Source: Actinomycetota bacterium
GTDB taxonomy: Bacteria > Actinomycetota > Actinomycetes > S36-B12 > CAIYMF01
DNA: 64,000 nt
Assembly (NCBI GenBank): GCA_026393115.1
Contig: JAPLAU010000008.1
Location: 310,001-374,000, forward strand
Direction of reading: 5' to 3'
Made by a program: the position numbers and the translations under genes. The notes below the pieces were generated by a model. The model did no database searches, was not told the origin of the DNA, and saw only the letters and a program-made list of their open reading frames with translations. Below, in pieces: positions 3 through 59,148 of the stretch; the first letter of the stretch is position 1; each line of letters begins with the position of its first letter.

Positions 3-2009
3 GACGCCGTCATGGACGCCAAGAAGGCCATGGACCCGGGCGCTCCCGTCATCCGCGACGACAAGGGTCAGACCGACAACAGCATCACTGACGTTCACGG
101 CAACCAGTCGTGGGAGTCAGGTAACGCCGAAGCGACCGCGGCTGCGATTGCCGCTGCTGAGGCCGACCCCAACTGTGTCGTCGTGACCGAGCAGATTCCC
201 TACCCGCGCGTGCACCCGGCGCCCATGGAGACCTGTGGTTCGGTTGCCGAACTCAACCCGGTGACCGGTCAGCTCACGTTGTACACGACCAGCCAGGCAC
301 CGCACGCACACCGCACGGTGTACGCGATGGTGGCCGGTCTGCCCGAGCAGAAGATCCGGGTCATTAGCCCCGACATCGGTGGCGGTTTCGGCAACAAGGT
401 CGGCGTCTACCCCGGATACGTTCTCTCGATCGTCGGAAGTCTGCTGACCGGCAAGCCGGTGAAGTGGATGGAAGACCGCAGCGAGAACTTGATGTCGACG
501 TCGTTCGCTCGCGACTACCACATGAAGGCCACCATCGCGGCGACCAGGGAAGGCAAGATCCTCGCGGTTGACGTTGACGTTCTCGCCGACCACGGTGCGT
601 TCAACGGTGTGGCACAGCCGACCAACTACCCGGCCGGTTTCTTCCACATTTTCTCGGGTTCGTACGACTACCCGAACGCGCACTGCAAGGTCACGCCGGT
701 GTACACCAACAAGGCACCTGGTGGCGTTGCGTACGCATGTTCGTTCCGCATCACCGAGGCCGCGTACGTGATTGAGCGCGTCGTCGACTGCCTCGCGGCC
801 GAACTGCAGATGGACCCGGCTGAGTTGCGGTTGAAGAACCTCATCGCTGCTGACAAGTTCCCCTACATGTCGCCCACTGGCTGGGAGTACGACTCGGGCG
901 AATACGAGAAGACGATGCGACTGGCCATGGAAATCGCTGGCTACGACGAACTCCGCCGCGAGCAGGCAGAGAAGCGTGCCAAGGGCGAGTACATGGGAAT
1001 CGGCATCTCGTTCTTCACCGAAGGTGTGGGCGCCGGACCCCGCAAGACGATGGACATTCTCGGCCTCGGTATGGCTGACGGTATTGAACTGCGCGTGCAC
1101 CCCACGGGCAAGGCAGTGCTGCGTCTGTCGGTGCAGTCACAGGGTCAGGCACACGAGACCACCTTCGCGCAGATTGTGAGCCACGAGCTCGGCATTCCGC
1201 CGGAGGACATCGACGTCGTGCACGGTGACACTGACCAGACTCCGTTCGGCCTCGGAACCTACGGTTCGCGGTCGACTCCGGTGTCGGGTGCTGCCGCGTC
1301 GGTCGTTGCACGCAAGGTGCGCGAGCGGGCCAAGATCGTTGCTGCGGCAGCGCTCGAGTGCTCGCCCGACGACCTTGAGTGGGAACTTGGTCGCTGGTAC
1401 GTGAAGGGTGACAAGGAGCGCGGCAAGACGATCCAAGAGATCGCCCTGCTCTCGCACAGTTCGCTCGAACTGCCCGAAGGTATCGAGGGTCACCTTGACG
1501 CCACAGCCGTCTACAACCCGCCGAACCTCACCTACCCTTACGGTTGCTACATCTGCGTCGTTGACGTTGATGTGCTCACCGGCCAGGTCAAGGTGCGTCG
1601 CTTCATCGCCGTCGACGACTGCGGTGTGCGTATCAACCCGATGGTCGTCGAAGGCCAGGTTCACGGTGGTCTTGCTGACGGAATCGGTATGGCGCTGATG
1701 GAACTCATCGCGTTCGACGAAGACGGAAACTGCCTCGGCGGTTCTTTCATGGACTACCTGTTGCCCACGGCAATGGAATGTCCTGACTACGAACTCGGCG
1801 AGACCGTCACGCCTTCCCCTCACCACCCCATTGGTGCAAAGGGTGTCGGCGAGTCGGCAACGGTGGGTTCACCTGCTGCTGTCGTGAACGCCGTGATCGA
1901 CGCGATCAGCCCGTTCGGAGTGCGTCACGCCGACATGCCGCTCACCCCGGCAAACGTGTGGCGTGCCATTCAGGGCCGGCCGATGCGTACGGACATGGCC
2001 GTAGAGTAA
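3..2009 (+). CDS. coxL: Aerobic CO dehydrogenase large subunit, form I (5' end outside window)
   Basis: This is the molybdenum-binding subunit of aerobic carbon monoxide dehydrogenase, which oxidises CO to CO2 at a Mo-S-Cu site. The reading frame is already open at the window edge. About 668 residues are visible and roughly 135 N-terminal residues are missing compared with the ~800-residue family. The active-site loop at 729-749 reads AYACSFR, which fits the form I signature AYxCSFR; the Cys codon at 738-740 would be the copper ligand. Form II enzymes have AYRGAGR instead. A C-terminal GVGES motif supplies the conserved Glu near molybdenum. Small and medium subunits are not in view and presumably lie upstream. 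The gene is followed after 4 bases by the XdhC-YHS gene, so it belongs to the same operon as coxD, coxE and the cofactor genes. Confidence 0.95.
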   Translation, partial: DAVMDAKKAMDPGAPVIRDDKGQTDNSITDVHGNQSWESGNAEATAAAIAAAEADPNCVVVTEQIPYPRVHPAPMETCGSVAELNPVTGQLTLYTTSQAPHAHRTVYAMVAGLPEQKIRVISPDIGGGFGNKVGVYPGYVLSIVGSLLTGKPVKWMEDRSENLMSTSFARDYHMKATIAATREGKILAVDVDVLADHGAFNGVAQPTNYPAGFFHIFSGSYDYPNAHCKVTPVYTNKAPGGVAYACSFRITEAAYVIERVVDCLAAELQMDPAELRLKNLIAADKFPYMSPTGWEYDSGEYEKTMRLAMEIAGYDELRREQAEKRAKGEYMGIGISFFTEGVGAGPRKTMDILGLGMADGIELRVHPTGKAVLRLSVQSQGQAHETTFAQIVSHELGIPPEDIDVVHGDTDQTPFGLGTYGSRSTPVSGAAASVVARKVRERAKIVAAAALECSPDDLEWELGRWYVKGDKERGKTIQEIALLSHSSLELPEGIEGHLDATAVYNPPNLTYPYGCYICVVDVDVLTGQVKVRRFIAVDDCGVRINPMVVEGQVHGGLADGIGMALMELIAFDEDGNCLGGSFMDYLLPTAMECPDYELGETVTPSPHHPIGAKGVGESATVGSPAAVVNAVIDAISPFGVRHADMPLTPANVWRAIQGRPMRTDMAVE

Positions 2010-49746: not shown

Positions 49747-50382
49747 TCAGATGAGTTTGCGGTCGGAAGCCCACCGGGCGAGTTCGCGCCGGTTCGACAA
49801 CTGCAGTTTGCGTAGCACTGCCGATACGTGTGTCTCGACGGTCTTGATCGACAGCACCAATTCCGTCGCAACTTCGCGGTAGGTGTAGCCGCGAGCGATG
49901 AGTCTCATCACTTCGCGCTCGCGTGGTGTAAGTCGATCGATCTCATCGTCGTGTTCGGCGGCACCGCCCGCGAACGCATCGAGAACAAATCCGGCAAGCC
50001 GCGGTGAGAAGACCGCGTCGCCGTCAGCAGTGCGTTGGATCGCCTCTCGAAGTTCGGGACCCGAGATGGCCTTCGTGACGTAACCGCGCGCGCCACCGCG
50101 CACCGTGGCAACCACGTCGTCAGATGCGTCGCTGACAGAGAGCGCAAGGAATCTGGTTGCCGGTACGTGGGGAAGGCATCCGTCGAGCACCGCACGTGCG
50201 TCGCCTCCGGGCAGGTGTACATCGAGGAGAACCACGTCGGGGATGGTGGCGCGAATCACCCGAATGGCCTCATCAACGTCGGCGGCTTCACCGACGATAT
50301 CGAAGTCGTTACCGAGTTCAGCGCGAACTCCCGCGCGAAACATCGCGTGATCGTCGACGAGCACGAGACGTAGTTGTGTCAC
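49747..50382 (-). CDS. NarL/LuxR-family response regulator
   Basis: A 211-residue response regulator. The receiver domain (about 1-120) has acidic residues in LVDDHAMFRAG, phosphoacceptor Asp in DVVLLDVHLPGG and Lys in GYVTKAIS. The C-terminal LuxR helix-turn-helix (about 145-205) reads LTPREREVMRLIARGYTYREVATELVLSIKTVETHVSAVLRKL. It overlaps its kinase gene by 4 bases and is divergent-linked through the kinase to a PspC protein, similar to LiaRS-type envelope-stress systems. Confidence 0.93.
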   Translation of the reverse strand: MTQLRLVLVDDHAMFRAGVRAELGNDFDIVGEAADVDEAIRVIRATIPDVVLLDVHLPGGDARAVLDGCLPHVPATRFLALSVSDASDDVVATVRGGARGYVTKAISGPELREAIQRTADGDAVFSPRLAGFVLDAFAGGAAEHDDEIDRLTPREREVMRLIARGYTYREVATELVLSIKTVETHVSAVLRKLQLSNRRELARWASDRKLI

Positions 50383-51632
50383 GGGGTCACGTCGGAATCG
50401 CGTGGCAGGCGCAACTGAATCTCAGTGCCGGTTTCTGGTGAGCTTCGAACAGTCGCGCTCCCTCCGTTGCGTTCCATTCTCCTGATGATCGACTCGCGTA
50501 CGCCATGGCGGTCGGCGGGAATGGATTCCAAATCAAAGCCGGAACCGTGATCGCGAATGAATACCTCGGCCATGTGTTCGTCAACTTCGGCGTAGACGGA
50601 CGCTTCATGTCCACCGTGGCGAGCCGCATTCACCATTGCTTCGCGGGCCGCTGCAACCAGTGCGGAGAGTGCAGGATCGAGATCGGTATCGCCGACGGTC
50701 ACGAGTTCGATCGTGGCGTCGTAGGAGGATTCAATGTCGGCAGCGTCGCGTTTGAGAGCGGCCGCGAAAGTGCGTTCTGGATCGCCATCGGGAGCGTACA
50801 GCCACGAGCGCAGTGCGCGTTCTTCGGTTCGCGCGAGGCGGGCGACTTCCTGTGGGTCGTCACTGGCGCGTTGAATCAGCGTGAGCGTTTGGAGTACGGA
50901 GTCGTGCACGTGTGCGGCAATGTCGGCGCGTTCCTCCGCGCGAATGAGTGCGCGTCGTTGCTGACTTTGCTCGCGCAACAGGCGGTAGATCCACGGAAAT
51001 GTCACGAGGGCCACGCCGCCCAGAATGAGCAGCGCCGCCGACAGTCCTTGAAGGGCCGCGGCCGGGCCCGTTTGGCTCAGGAGAAGAGCAACGAGGGCGA
51101 ACACCACGAGCACGATTCCAACAGCGATGCGCCAACGGCCGGCGGCTGCGGACGTGTCGACTGTCTGCTGGGCCGCCTTGCTCGCCGCCGCCGACCACGT
51201 GTCGCGTTGTTCATCGTCGGTCTGACGCCAAATGAGTGCTGCTCCCACGATGGCAATGAGCAGGGGAAGGACGGCCCCGCGCGCGAAGTCAACTCCCAGG
51301 GCAGCGAGCGAGAGTCCGATGCCGACGACAATCACGATGAGAGACAGCAGCCGCGTGGTGTCTGAACTGCGCGCAACCGTTGGGTCAGTGGCCGCCTGGG
51401 TGTTGAGGGGCAGCGCTGCCCAGAAAGCGACGTACAGCACCAGGCCAATGCCCCCGGCGAACGTCAGTACGACGAATGCGACGCGCACGGCCCACACGCG
51501 CACGTGCAAGTGTTCGGCGAGGCCGATGGCAACACCGGCCACGACGCGACCAGTCATCGGACGGGTAGCTCGTGGGGTTGTCACGTCGGTGCTCACGTAC
51601 TCATCTTCGCGTGAGTGGGCGGCTCGTGGCAT
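50379..51632 (-). CDS. PspC-domain histidine kinase
   Basis: A 417-residue membrane sensor kinase. An N-terminal PspC domain (about 20-80: RVVAGVAIGLAEHLHVRVWAVRVAFVVLTFAGGIGLVLYVAFW), three or four more membrane segments to about 215, then a HisKA_3-type dimerisation helix (RADIAAHVHDSVLQTLTLIQRASDDPQEV; HDSVLQTL contains the phosphorylated His) and an HATPase domain with AAREAMVNAARHGG and DHGSGFD. This architecture is widespread in actinobacteria as envelope-stress sensor. ATG 51632 is the family-like start. Confidence 0.93.
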   Translation of the reverse strand: MPRAAHSREDEYVSTDVTTPRATRPMTGRVVAGVAIGLAEHLHVRVWAVRVAFVVLTFAGGIGLVLYVAFWAALPLNTQAATDPTVARSSDTTRLLSLIVIVVGIGLSLAALGVDFARGAVLPLLIAIVGAALIWRQTDDEQRDTWSAAASKAAQQTVDTSAAAGRWRIAVGIVLVVFALVALLLSQTGPAAALQGLSAALLILGGVALVTFPWIYRLLREQSQQRRALIRAEERADIAAHVHDSVLQTLTLIQRASDDPQEVARLARTEERALRSWLYAPDGDPERTFAAALKRDAADIESSYDATIELVTVGDTDLDPALSALVAAAREAMVNAARHGGHEASVYAEVDEHMAEVFIRDHGSGFDLESIPADRHGVRESIIRRMERNGGSATVRSSPETGTEIQLRLPRDSDVTP

Positions 51633-55081: not shown

Positions 55082-55501
55082 ATGCGCGAAATGTTTGTGG
55101 CCGCGCTCGTCGCGGTCTCACTTGCTGCGTGTTCGTCGTCGACGCCGACTCAACCGCCGACGTCTGGCGGAGCCCTCCTGTCATTCGTGCCGACGACTCC
55201 CACCGTGTGCGATGGTCCGACAGAGAACAACACTCGTACCTGCGTTGGGTGGGGTGAGCCCGGGCAACTCGTTGTCGTGGTGCTCGGTAGCAGTTCGTGC
55301 CCGAGTGTGGCCCAGTCGGCAACCGTTACCGGAACGCAAGCGGTCACGGTAGTGGTTGAGCCCACGGGTGGTCCGTCCTGCACCGCCGATGCCGTTGAGA
55401 CAGCAAGCGAGATCGCCATCCCCTCGGGCGTCGACTCGTCGAAGTTGACCTCCGTCACGGTGGGCGGGATCAGCATCACCCTTTCGCCGCGATCAGGCTG
55501 A
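55082..55501 (+). CDS. Small secreted lipoprotein of unknown function
   Basis: A 139-residue protein with a short signal peptide and lipobox LAAC near residue 16-19 ([11 protein letters not shown]). The mature part is Thr/Val/Ser-rich with four Cys (TVCDG, RTCVG, SSCPS, PSCTA), which could form two disulfides. No family is recognised. It precedes the heliorhodopsin gene by 129 bases on the same strand. Confidence 0.75.
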
Positions 55502-55630
55502 GCCCTCACCGCTCACGCCAACGCTGCGGTCGCGGCACCGCCAATTCCGTGATAGTGAAGTAGTGCCCACCACGTGCACAAGGGTGACGTGTCAAACGCC
55601 AAGAGCGCGCCTACTCGGAAGGTTCACCAG

Positions 55631-56428
55631 ATGACAGTTCCCGTAGCAGTAGCGGAAGACAGTGCCGCGACCAGCCAACTTGGAGGGATCCGGCGGTGGA
55701 ACCTCATCGCGGGATTTGCTCACCTCGCGCAGTTAATCGCGATCCTCGCACTAGCCAACAACTTCTCGTTGCCGGTCACCGCGACCTACATGGCAGGGCC
55801 GCCTGGCACTCCGCCGTCGCAGCCGGTGGTGTTGTTCGATTCACGCATCGCGTGGGGCGTGGCGCTGTTCTTCGGACTGTGCGCGCTGTTCCATTTCATG
55901 GTGTGTCTGCCGCCGTTCAACCGGCGGTATGTGGCAGGGCTCGTGGCCCAGCACAACTACTTCCGGTGGGTCGAATACTCGCTGAGCTCGTCGATCATGA
56001 TGGTGCTCATCGCGCAGATCGTCGGAATCTCAGACGCTGCGGCGCTGATCGCCATCTTCGGCGTCAACGCCTCAATGATCCTCTTCGGCTGGCTGCAAGA
56101 AAAGTACGAGACTCCCGGAAGCGGCGGGTGGGTTCCGTTCATCTTCGGCTGCATCGCCGGCATCGTTCCGTGGCTTGCAGTGCTGCTTTATGTTGTCGCA
56201 CCCGGCGCGGCAACCGATGTCGAGCCGCCCGCGTTCGTGTACGGCATCATCATCTCGCTCTTCCTCTTCTTCAACTGTTTCGCGGTTGTGCAGGTGCTGC
56301 AGTACAAGCGAGTCGGCAAATGGTCGAACTACCTCAACGGTGAGCGCACCTACATCACTCTCAGTTTGATCGCCAAGTCGCTACTCGCTTGGCAGATCTT
56401 CGCCGGAACGCTGGCACCGGGATCGTAG
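55631..56428 (+). CDS. Heliorhodopsin
   Basis: A 265-residue seven-helix microbial rhodopsin of the heliorhodopsin class. Retinal-binding Lys is at 249 (SLIAKSLLAWQIF), and the Glu counterion at 115 (WVEYSLSSS). In the reference HeR 48C12 these are K241 and E107, the same spacing of 134. His31 and His88 match H23 and H80 there, and Ser245 matches S237. ATG 55631 gives the usual short soluble N-terminus, which faces the cytoplasm in this inverted-topology family. Heliorhodopsins do not pump; a sensory or regulatory role has been proposed. Adjacent genes are a lipoprotein and a convergent pair of DUF202 proteins. Confidence 0.97.
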   Translation: MTVPVAVAEDSAATSQLGGIRRWNLIAGFAHLAQLIAILALANNFSLPVTATYMAGPPGTPPSQPVVLFDSRIAWGVALFFGLCALFHFMVCLPPFNRRYVAGLVAQHNYFRWVEYSLSSSIMMVLIAQIVGISDAAALIAIFGVNASMILFGWLQEKYETPGSGGWVPFIFGCIAGIVPWLAVLLYVVAPGAATDVEPPAFVYGIIISLFLFFNCFAVVQVLQYKRVGKWSNYLNGERTYITLSLIAKSLLAWQIFAGTLAPGS

Positions 56429-56478: not shown

Positions 56479-56781
56479 TCAGGGCTGAGATACGGCGAAG
56501 GCGATCCACACCACCGCGAGCGACGCGATGCGCAGCAAGTTCAGCAGCAGTAGGACTGCAGGTGAGCGGGGAACGTCGGCAGATGAGCTGTACGCGAGTT
56601 GCGACTCGAGTGCGGTGGCCAACCCGAACCCCACGCAGACGAATGCCGCCACGATTGCGTTGACGCTTCCCTGGGTGATGGCCAGATGTAGTGCCACCAA
56701 TGAAGTGCCCACGAGGGCGAGCGAGGTTCGCCGCCAGGCCAGCAGGTTTCGCTCCTGCTGGCCGGCGGGCGGGCCGCTCAT
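56479..56781 (-). CDS. DUF202 family membrane protein
   Basis: A 100-residue membrane protein: the start QQERNLLAWRRTSLALVGTSL with Arg-Thr motif is typical of the DUF202/YidH group, with three predicted helices. ATG 56781 overlaps the end of the upstream DUF202 gene by 4 bases. The pair would form a small membrane complex. Function unknown. Confidence 0.85.
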   Translation of the reverse strand: MSGPPAGQQERNLLAWRRTSLALVGTSLVALHLAITQGSVNAIVAAFVCVGFGLATALESQLAYSSSADVPRSPAVLLLLNLLRIASLAVVWIAFAVSQP

Positions 56782-57176
56782 GTGAGCCTCCACAGTTCAA
56801 CCACGACCACGAGCGCAACGAGAACGATGACGGCTGCGATGAACAACATGGTCGACGGCGCTGGCAGTGGTGCCCGCATTCGCACCGCCCGCTCGACACG
56901 AGCCCAGCGCACGATTCCGGCGACGGCGAGAAAGGCACCGGAGAGGCAAATGACGACCGGCAGCCACGTGACAGATCGCCACTCCGGCAGTGCACCTTCG
57001 AGCAAGACGAGCGCGATGCCACCTGCGACGACGGCGAGTGCAGTGCGCATCCATGCCAGTGCGGTGCGCTCATTGGCCAAGCTCACGCGCGGGTCGGGCT
57101 CATTGCCTACGCTATACACGCTGCGTGGCCTGCGGCGGTCAACAGCGTCGTCGGGCTCTTCCATGGGCGCCATCAT
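56778..57176 (-). CDS. DUF202/YidH family membrane protein
   Basis: A 132-residue (ATG 57176; ATG 57164 also possible) membrane protein. SLANERTALAWMRTALAVVAGGIALVLLEG is the conserved DUF202 start and two more helices follow. A hydrophilic N-terminus of about 30 residues precedes it. It is coupled to the second DUF202 gene and both are convergent with heliorhodopsin. Confidence 0.88.
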   Translation of the reverse strand: MMAPMEEPDDAVDRRRPRSVYSVGNEPDPRVSLANERTALAWMRTALAVVAGGIALVLLEGALPEWRSVTWLPVVICLSGAFLAVAGIVRWARVERAVRMRAPLPAPSTMLFIAAVIVLVALVVVVELWRLT

Positions 57177-57361: not shown

Positions 57362-58378
57362 ATGCCTCGAGGTCGGCCATCGAGGGAGACCGTCTACCGG
57401 CGCCTCGACGGCTCGGTAGCCGAATTACATGCCCGCTTTGGCGGTCTCCCAACCCCAGAGGAGGCCAGCGGCATCTGGTCAGACATCTGGCACCTAGAAG
57501 CACACCACTCCACTGCACTTGAGGGGAACACCCTCGTCCTCAGACAGGTAGAAGTGCTGCTTGACGAAGGAAGGACCGTTGGCGCCAAGCCCTTGAAGGA
57601 CTACCTAGAAGTTAAGGGTTACGGACAGGCGGCCGAGTGGGTCTACGGCCATGCACTTCGGCCAGGAGACTGGGGAGTCGATGATCTCCTCACATTGCGT
57701 GAGATCAAGCTGATTCACGAACTAGCGATGACTCCTGTGTGGGATGTGGCGCCGCACTCCGAAGCAACGGAACGAGAGGCGCCGGGGAGGTTTCGTGAGC
57801 ACGACCTGCATCCCCTCGGCTCAGGCATCACCCCTTTGAGTTGGCCGCTTGTACCGAGCGCGATGCAGGATTGGCTCGATCAGGTGGGCGAAGTGGCGCC
57901 GCGATTGAGAGGGGCTGCGAACTCGGATACGCCGCTGCCCGAGATGCTTGCGAGACTGCACAACGGGTTCGAGCGTGTTCATCCGTTCATTGACGGCAAT
58001 GGCCGCGCAGGTCGCCTGGCGTTGAACCTCATGCTCGTCCGCCTGGGCTACCCGCCGGCCATCATCGTGAAGTCACGGCGTCAGCGTTACCTCGACGCGA
58101 TGCAGAAAGCAGACGCTGAAGACTTTGCTCCGCTGGGTGAGATGATCGCCAAAGCCATATACGACAACATCAACCGCTTCATCCTCCCTGCGATCGCGGG
58201 GGAATCTAGACTCGTTCCTCTTGCTGCTTTGGTCTCGCACGACTTCACGCTTGCGGCGCTACGGCAGGCAGCGCAACGTGGCAAGCTCAGCGCGATTCAA
58301 GCGCCAGATGGAACGTGGCAGTCAACCAAGCACGATGTCGCGCACTATCGTCGCAACCGAGGCAAGCATCGCTCCTAG
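57362..58378 (+). CDS. Fic-domain protein (AMP transferase type) with N-terminal inhibitory motif
   Basis: A 338-residue Fic protein. The Fic motif HPFIDGNGRAGR is at 207-218 with catalytic His. An inhibitory helix motif STALEGN is at 50-56, the class II position before the Fic core, so activity is self-repressed. The C-terminal part (about 285-330, DFTLAALRQAAQRGKLSAIQAPDGTW) resembles a winged helix. ATG 57362 follows a GGGGGG run. Fic enzymes transfer AMP or other groups to protein hydroxyls. The AT-rich palindrome just upstream suggests autoregulation and a history of transfer. Confidence 0.9.
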   Translation: MPRGRPSRETVYRRLDGSVAELHARFGGLPTPEEASGIWSDIWHLEAHHSTALEGNTLVLRQVEVLLDEGRTVGAKPLKDYLEVKGYGQAAEWVYGHALRPGDWGVDDLLTLREIKLIHELAMTPVWDVAPHSEATEREAPGRFREHDLHPLGSGITPLSWPLVPSAMQDWLDQVGEVAPRLRGAANSDTPLPEMLARLHNGFERVHPFIDGNGRAGRLALNLMLVRLGYPPAIIVKSRRQRYLDAMQKADAEDFAPLGEMIAKAIYDNINRFILPAIAGESRLVPLAALVSHDFTLAALRQAAQRGKLSAIQAPDGTWQSTKHDVAHYRRNRGKHRS

Positions 58379-59148
58379 CGTGAGTCACGCACCGCGCGGT
58401 ACGCGACAGTGACGTACGGCATCGGGAAACGTTCTCGGCCCGCAAGATCAGGATGAGTGATCGCGAGTTCTCGCACTGACGCGAGCACATCGGCTGCATC
58501 CGCGCGCAACCGCACGTACGAGTAGGTGCCGATGAGTCCGACCAAGTCATCAGGGTTCATGACGACGTCATGATGAACATGGAACGATTCCACTCCGCTC
58601 CACTGGCTTCCCAGTTGAATCAATGAGCGATGAACTTCGTCGTTCCCGTCACTGAGCATCACCATCCTGTCTTCCCCTCCGATGAGTTGCGCAAGGTCAC
58701 GCATCCAGTCGGCTTCGAGATAGCGCAGGTTCCACAGCAACCCAAGAACGCCACCGGGTCGAACCACTCGGGCGAACTCGTCGGCCGCCACCGGGTGGTC
58801 TAGCCAATGCCAGGCTTGAGCGACAAATACCGCGTCAACGGACGCAGCGTCCAGCGGTAGGTGTTCGGCCGGTGCCTGATGAGCAGTGACACCTGGCAGC
58901 GAACTGGTGAGAGTTTCGAGCATGCCCGCGTCGGGCTCTACTGCGTCGACTCGTAGACCGCGCTGAATGAGTTGCTCGGTGAGGGCTCCTGTTCCGGCTC
59001 CCACGTCGGCCACGTGCGACACGGGTGTGGTCGCGGCGGCGATCACCCAATCAATGGCCTGCGAAGGGTAGGTGGGTCGGAACCGGCGATACGCATCAGC
59101 GCTCGCGCCGAACGAGAGCTGGCGCTCTTCGAAAGACGGTTGAGACAT
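58375..59148 (-). CDS. SAM-dependent methyltransferase (class I)
   Basis: A 257-residue methyltransferase. The SAM motif VADVGAGTGALTEQL is at about residue 46, followed by the acidic VDAVEPDAGML and a post-motif VDAVFVAQAWHWLDHP, VVRPGGVLGLLWNLR. It matches the class I group often annotated as ubiquinone/menaquinone-type or trans-aconitate-type. Substrate unknown. It overlaps the fic end by 4 bases (convergent). Confidence 0.88.
   Translation of the reverse strand: MSQPSFEERQLSFGASADAYRRFRPTYPSQAIDWVIAAATTPVSHVADVGAGTGALTEQLIQRGLRVDAVEPDAGMLETLTSSLPGVTAHQAPAEHLPLDAASVDAVFVAQAWHWLDHPVAADEFARVVRPGGVLGLLWNLRYLEADWMRDLAQLIGGEDRMVMLSDGNDEVHRSLIQLGSQWSGVESFHVHHDVVMNPDDLVGLIGTYSYVRLRADAADVLASVRELAITHPDLAGRERFPMPYVTVAYRAVRDSR

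What the first reader, a model, noticed from the sequence alone, without database searches (positions are those of the whole stretch)
55631..56428. Heliorhodopsin with all signature residues
Lys249, Glu115, His31, His88 and Ser245 match K241, E107, H23, H80 and S237 of HeR 48C12 with a constant offset of 8. It implies light sensing in this CO- and methyl-oxidising organism. Neighbours (lipoprotein, two DUF202 proteins) may be partners.
Basis: partly seen in the sequence, partly recalled or inferred. Interest (0 to 1): 0.6.

Follow-up and report, generated by a model that had tools for sequence, protein, structure and literature searches.

The report
Ordinary heliorhodopsin in a planktonic actinobacterium
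The gene is a normal, intact heliorhodopsin (a light-receptor membrane protein that needs retinal) of a kind common in this bacterial order; its neighbours look like bystanders, and the genome shows no known enzyme for making the retinal it needs.

Summary
ORF 55631-56428 (+) encodes a 265-aa heliorhodopsin (HeR): Pfam PF18761 326 bits, NCBIfam equivalog NF038020 333 bits (cut-off 100), 64% gapless identity with the solved HeR 48C12. HeR is common in the order: 70 of 99 genomes. This is a new member of a known family.

The partner idea is not supported. The lipoprotein has no match in the 98 other genomes. The DUF202 pair converges on HeR only in this genus (2 of 2 genomes); in the other 22 genomes with both families they lie on different contigs or 624 kb apart, and co-occurrence is at chance (Fisher p 0.50).

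Retinal supply: the genome has crtE/I/B-like genes, a two-part lycopene-cyclase match and a type-1 rhodopsin, but no Brp/Blh or RPE65-family match, as published for several acI genomes. Trees suggest, without proving, that this copy came from another family of the order. Light sensing remains inferred.

The parts
55631..56428 (+). heliorhodopsin, 265 aa (ATG start; GGAAG about 9 nt upstream by eye; an in-frame GTG at 55574 is an alternative start)
56479..56793 (-). DUF202 membrane protein b, 104 aa; converges on HeR (50-bp gap); judged not part of the HeR unit
56778..57176 (-). DUF202 membrane protein a, 132 aa; overlaps DUF202b by 16 bp; judged not part of the HeR unit
55082..55501 (+). putative lipoprotein, 139 aa, lipobox-like LAAC (recalled motif); no relative found in the order; 129 bp upstream of HeR on the same strand

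Best explanation
A bona fide actinobacterial heliorhodopsin of the 48C12 type. Retinal is expected to bind Lys249, with Glu115 as counterion and His31/His88 in the cytoplasmic-side network. Green-yellow light (predicted maximum about 550 nm or slightly above) isomerises retinal and drives a slow cycle without ion transport; the changed cytoplasmic face would then act on a protein encoded elsewhere in the genome. Shown here: family membership, conserved residues, no conserved neighbour. Inferred: pigment formation, colour, slow cycle, lack of transport, signalling; the partner is unknown. The retinal must be taken up or made by an enzyme outside the two families searched.
For: Family scores and 161 of 250 identical residues to 48C12 without gaps. 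The K241, S237, A240 and F206 positions are identical in 69 of 69 HeR sequences of the order (the window's included), E107 and R104 positions in 68 of the 68 that have a letter there. Q148, Q213 and A240 equivalents are kept, which the colour-tuning paper links to maxima above 550 nm (PMC7807009, passages read). The position equivalent to V2HeR3 E191 is Leu210 and to W195 is Phe214, against proton transport (PMC9448325, passages read). 48C12 itself showed no pump or channel activity (PMC6951262, part 1 of 2 read).
Against: No PF15461 or PF03055 match in the genome, so the protein may be short of retinal. HeR is patchy: 29 of 99 genomes have no match, some of them incomplete. Regulation of a partner has been shown only for a few HeRs with operon neighbours, and this one has no conserved neighbour. 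The hydropathy scan resolved only 6 of 7 helices, so topology rests on homology.
Confidence: 0.8

Rival explanations
1. HeR works with the flanking DUF202 pair and/or the lipoprotein as a light-signalling unit.
For: The convergent HeR-DUF202 layout is kept in the one same-genus genome G001, where HeR is 99.2% identical over the 128 residues present.
Against: Convergent, not co-directional. Of 24 genomes with both families, only the 2 of this genus have them adjacent; in the other 22 they are on different contigs, or 624 kb apart in G090. HeR x DUF202 co-occurrence Fisher p 0.50. 12 of 36 genomes with DUF202 have no HeR match. tblastn at E 1e-6 found no DUF202 or lipoprotein relative in any of the 110 HeR loci among 113 searched. 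No lipoprotein match in 98 other genomes. Caveat: several HeR genes sit at contig ends.
Confidence: 0.04
2. HeR signals to the two-component system at 49747-51632 (-), about 4 kb away, next to a PspC-like protein.
For: Kinase- and regulator-like ORFs lie within 6 kb (recognised by eye); histidine kinases have been reported near HeRs (PMC8612252, passages).
Against: Of the 110 HeR loci, a relative of the regulator was found near HeR only in L032 (34% identity) and of the PspC-like ORF only in L055, about 10 kb away. At least four genes lie between.
Confidence: 0.05
3. The gene is a relic or a dark protein: without retinal it stays an unpigmented apoprotein.
For: No known retinal-forming enzyme found; 56 of 70 HeR genomes of the order lack a PF15461 match.
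Against: All retinal-site residues checked are kept, also in genomes with no phytoene synthase match (G025, G062), which argues for use with retinal. Blh-lacking actinobacteria can take up retinal or make it by an unknown route (PMC7734400, passages).
Confidence: 0.1
4. It is a proton transporter like the viral V2HeR3.
For: Same family; Schiff-base Lys and counterion Glu present.
Against: Leu and Phe at the E191 and W195 positions, and 48C12, 64% identical, does not transport (PMC6951262).
Confidence: 0.02

Closest known systems
HeR 48C12 (actinobacterial; PDB 6su3, 6uh3, 9ljj)
   Same: 64.4% identical over 250 residues without a gap, including the long first extracellular loop; 25 of 26 checked positions identical
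   Different: Trp163 is Ile171 here. In print the 48C12 gene lies beside glutamine synthetase (PMC9529153, passages); here it does not.
AbHeR of IMCC26103 (regulates glutamine synthetase)
   Same: Same family; both organisms actinobacterial
   Different: No glutamine synthetase neighbour here; in the reported organism crtEBIY and blh are both present (PMC9529153, passages), here no Blh was found
OcHeR (regulates an ABC transporter)
   Same: Same family; sequences not compared here
   Different: None of the ten reported operon neighbour groups directly flanks HeR here (list in PMC11109279, passages); an alpha/beta hydrolase is 1.6 kb away behind two other genes
V2HeR3 (viral proton transporter)
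   Same: Schiff-base Lys and counterion Glu by homology
   Different: E191 and W195 positions are Leu210 and Phe214 here

Membership tests
Heliorhodopsin (PF18761 / NF038020) | score above curated family cut-offs, full length | tested here: met
   325.9 bits vs 26.7, profile 1-242 of 242; 333.1 vs 100, 1-244 of 244
Heliorhodopsin (PF18761 / NF038020) | Schiff-base Lys in TM7 and Ser four before it (SxxxK) | tested here: met
   S245, K249; motif as given in PMC9601134 (passages)
Heliorhodopsin (PF18761 / NF038020) | ESL motif in TM3 with counterion Glu | tested here: met
   E115, S119, L126
Heliorhodopsin (PF18761 / NF038020) | long extracellular loop 1 | tested here: met
   gapless alignment through 48C12 residues 38-63; loop span from PMC6951262
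Heliorhodopsin (PF18761 / NF038020) | inverted topology, N-terminus in the cytoplasm | tested here: inconclusive
   simple hydropathy found 6 segments only; Lys/Arg counts agree weakly; otherwise by homology
Heliorhodopsin (PF18761 / NF038020) | forms a retinal pigment with a slow photocycle | not testable with these tools
   needs expression with retinal
Proton-transporting HeR (V2HeR3 group) | Glu at the E191 position (with Trp195) | tested here: not met
   Leu210 and Phe214
HeR with operon partner (ten groups of PMC11109279) | one of the ten neighbour families in the same operon | tested here: not met
   adjacent genes are a lipoprotein-like ORF and a convergent DUF202 pair

The most novel reading that the evidence does not exclude
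The bacterium, like many HeR carriers of its order, makes retinal with a carotenoid-cleaving enzyme that is neither Brp/Blh nor RPE65-like, feeding both the heliorhodopsin and the type-1 rhodopsin.
Probability: 0.15. Interest if true: 0.55.

Novelty: new member of a known kind. Interest (0 to 1): 0.17.

Why it matters
On its own it matters little: HeRs are widespread in these actinobacteria. The useful by-products are a negative test of the DUF202/lipoprotein idea and a count for the order: 56 of 70 HeR-bearing genomes have no PF15461 match, all 16 genomes with one also have a type-1 rhodopsin, and none of the 17 with HeR but no type-1 rhodopsin has it. That makes HeR chromophore supply a testable question in this group.

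Tried and rejected
DUF202 or lipoprotein as partner: rejected by distribution and position. A nearby two-component system: no recurrence around HeR. Proton-transporter reading: hallmark Glu absent. A Blh gene beside the type-1 rhodopsin, as in G011 (contig C235, about 560 bp apart): not seen among ORFs of 150 aa or more in L120 7000-15000 (by eye). PF05834 lycopene cyclase in the own genome: six matches at low scores, four of them short N-terminal ones of about 36 positions, read as nucleotide-binding motifs; TIGR03462 gave two neighbouring matches instead. Neighbour clustering around HeR gave no family relevant to this locus; its clearest operon-like group (12 loci, adjacent in 11) looks like glutamine synthetase by eye, not checked by a call. 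The consensus promoter scan found nothing and the terminator-like hits lie inside genes. Transfer of HeR into this genus: the HeR tree groups G000 with G040 and G028 of another family (100/96) and one clade for all six family-f1 rows is rejected (p-AU 0.001), but G000 with G009 alone is not rejected (p-AU 0.146), G012 carries two copies, and the grouping of family f1 in the phytoene-synthase tree is weakly supported (80/91), so it stays a suggestion. Rows dropped: G001 (partial) and the second copy of G074 from the HeR tree; G015, G027 and G087 (partial HeR matches) and the fragmentary extra matches of G033, G059 and G087 were not fetched for the HeR set; the phytoene-synthase set holds 40 of the 90 genomes with a match. 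No structure was predicted, since solved structures 64% identical exist.

Full report
What is there. The ORF at 55631-56428 (+) encodes 265 residues. It matches the heliorhodopsin models of Pfam (325.9 bits, cut-off 26.7) and NCBIfam (333.1 bits, cut-off 100, equivalog) over their whole length. Its nearest solved relatives are the 48C12 chains (E about 1e-103), to which it aligns without a gap over 250 residues with 161 identical, 64.4%. Of 26 positions checked, chosen from the papers read and from recall, 25 are identical, the exception being Trp163, here Ile171.

Expected properties. The three residues linked in print to absorption above 550 nm (Gln148, Gln213, Ala240 of 48C12; PMC7807009, passages) are kept. 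The position of the Glu that marks ion-transporting HeRs (E191 of V2HeR3; PMC9448325, passages) is Leu210, placed four residues before the Phe206/Trp195 position as in the TaHeR comparison given there (I199/F203). A non-transporting, sensory-type HeR is therefore the best reading. None of this was measured.

Setting. The window lies in G000:C23, a 3.51-Mb genome in 34 contigs, 95.3% complete. Same-order genomes share contig lengths with records titled Candidatus Nanopelagicales (G090 C3 1,422,538 bases with JAGYJJ010000004.1; G096 C4 193,107 with JAGYKV010000010.1; G036 C194 72,380 with JAQTXL010000001.1), so the order is probably Nanopelagicales; this is an inference from lengths. HeR was found in 70 of 99 genomes (49 of 65 good-quality ones). 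HeR is thus ordinary in this group. Published work likewise reports HeR as widely distributed in freshwater habitats and freshwater Actinobacteria (PMC8612252, passages and one section).

Neighbours. The lipoprotein-like ORF (55082-55501) matched nothing in the other 98 genomes, the same-genus G001 (98% complete) included. The DUF202 pair (56479-57176, minus strand) converges on HeR. PF02656 matches occur in 36 of 99 genomes, 24 of which have HeR and 12 not; co-occurrence is not above chance (Fisher p 0.50, genomes not independent). Only in G000 and G001 are they adjacent; in the other 22 they are on different contigs, or 624 kb apart in G090. Some HeR matches lie at contig ends, so a few adjacencies could be missed. 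tblastn with the window's neighbours found no DUF202 or lipoprotein relative in 110 HeR loci (113 loci searched, three of them fetched for another family; flanks from under 1 kb to 10 kb; partly the same genomes twice). No paper in the library holds both 'heliorhodopsin' and 'DUF202'.

Retinal supply. In G000 no match to PF15461 (Brp/Blh) was found; the same search rang in 16 of 99 genomes, two of them in the same family (G006, G011), so it works in this group although none of the 14 standard control genomes rang. PF03055 (RPE65-like) was also silent, with controls ringing in 2 of 14. The genome does hold a phytoene synthase (C6:4452-5222) with ORFs that look like a phytoene desaturase and a polyprenyl synthase near it (by eye), two neighbouring TIGR03462 lycopene-cyclase matches at C6:625-1181, and one type-1 rhodopsin at C1:14241-14921 whose TM3 reads as D-T-E by eye. 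The pattern crtEBIY without blh is published for acI strains and called widespread in that lineage (PMC5301498, passages), and reliance on outside retinal or an unknown route is discussed in print (PMC7734400; PMC12422013; passages). Across the 99 genomes, 56 of 70 with HeR have no PF15461 match; all 16 with one have a type-1 rhodopsin; none of the 17 with HeR but no type-1 rhodopsin has one. Fisher p for type-1 x PF15461 is 0.00013 and for HeR x PF15461 is 0.14, genomes not independent. Blh thus follows the type-1 rhodopsin more than HeR. Missing genes in incomplete genomes cannot be ruled out one by one.

Origin of this copy. Outside its genus the protein is closest to G040 (86.4%) and G028 (81.5%) of another family, against 57.5-76.0% for full-length copies of its own family (G009 76.0, G011 60.9, G010 57.9, G012 57.5; a second, partial copy of G012 67.6), whereas the phytoene synthase is closer to its own family (80.2-82.3% in those four) than to G040 (76.9%) or G028 (66.8%). 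The tree agrees (p-AU 0.001 against one clade for family f1), but a pairing with G009 alone is not rejected (p-AU 0.146). Transfer between families is likely but not shown.

Verdict.

Noticed in passing
L158 (G038), L172 (G019), L162 (G043): A three-genome HeR clade has Leu in place of His80 and Thr in place of Ser111; His23 is Leu in two, the third is cut there. Lys and counterion Glu are kept. Natural variants without the cytoplasmic-side histidines.
   Followed up: partly
L174 / L123 (G009, same family): A bacterial HeR with Glu at the position of V2HeR3 E191, hallmark of ion-transporting viral HeRs; Phe, not Trp, at the W195 position. One genome only.
   Followed up: partly
G025 and G062 (L166, L164): Both genomes of one genus have HeR with intact retinal site but no match for phytoene synthase, type-1 rhodopsin or Brp/Blh.
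   Followed up: partly
window 57362-59148: A Fic-domain protein and a methyltransferase-like protein lie between the DUF202 pair and the amidohydrolase-like ORF; in G001 (L122) the two flanking units are next to each other without them.
   Followed up: partly
G074 C9:14084-14815 (L169): A second HeR in one genome, only 37% identical to the window's, with Met at both Gln colour-tuning positions.
   Followed up: no
window 3-2009: ORF with AYACSFR, a form-I CoxL-type motif (motif recalled).
   Followed up: no
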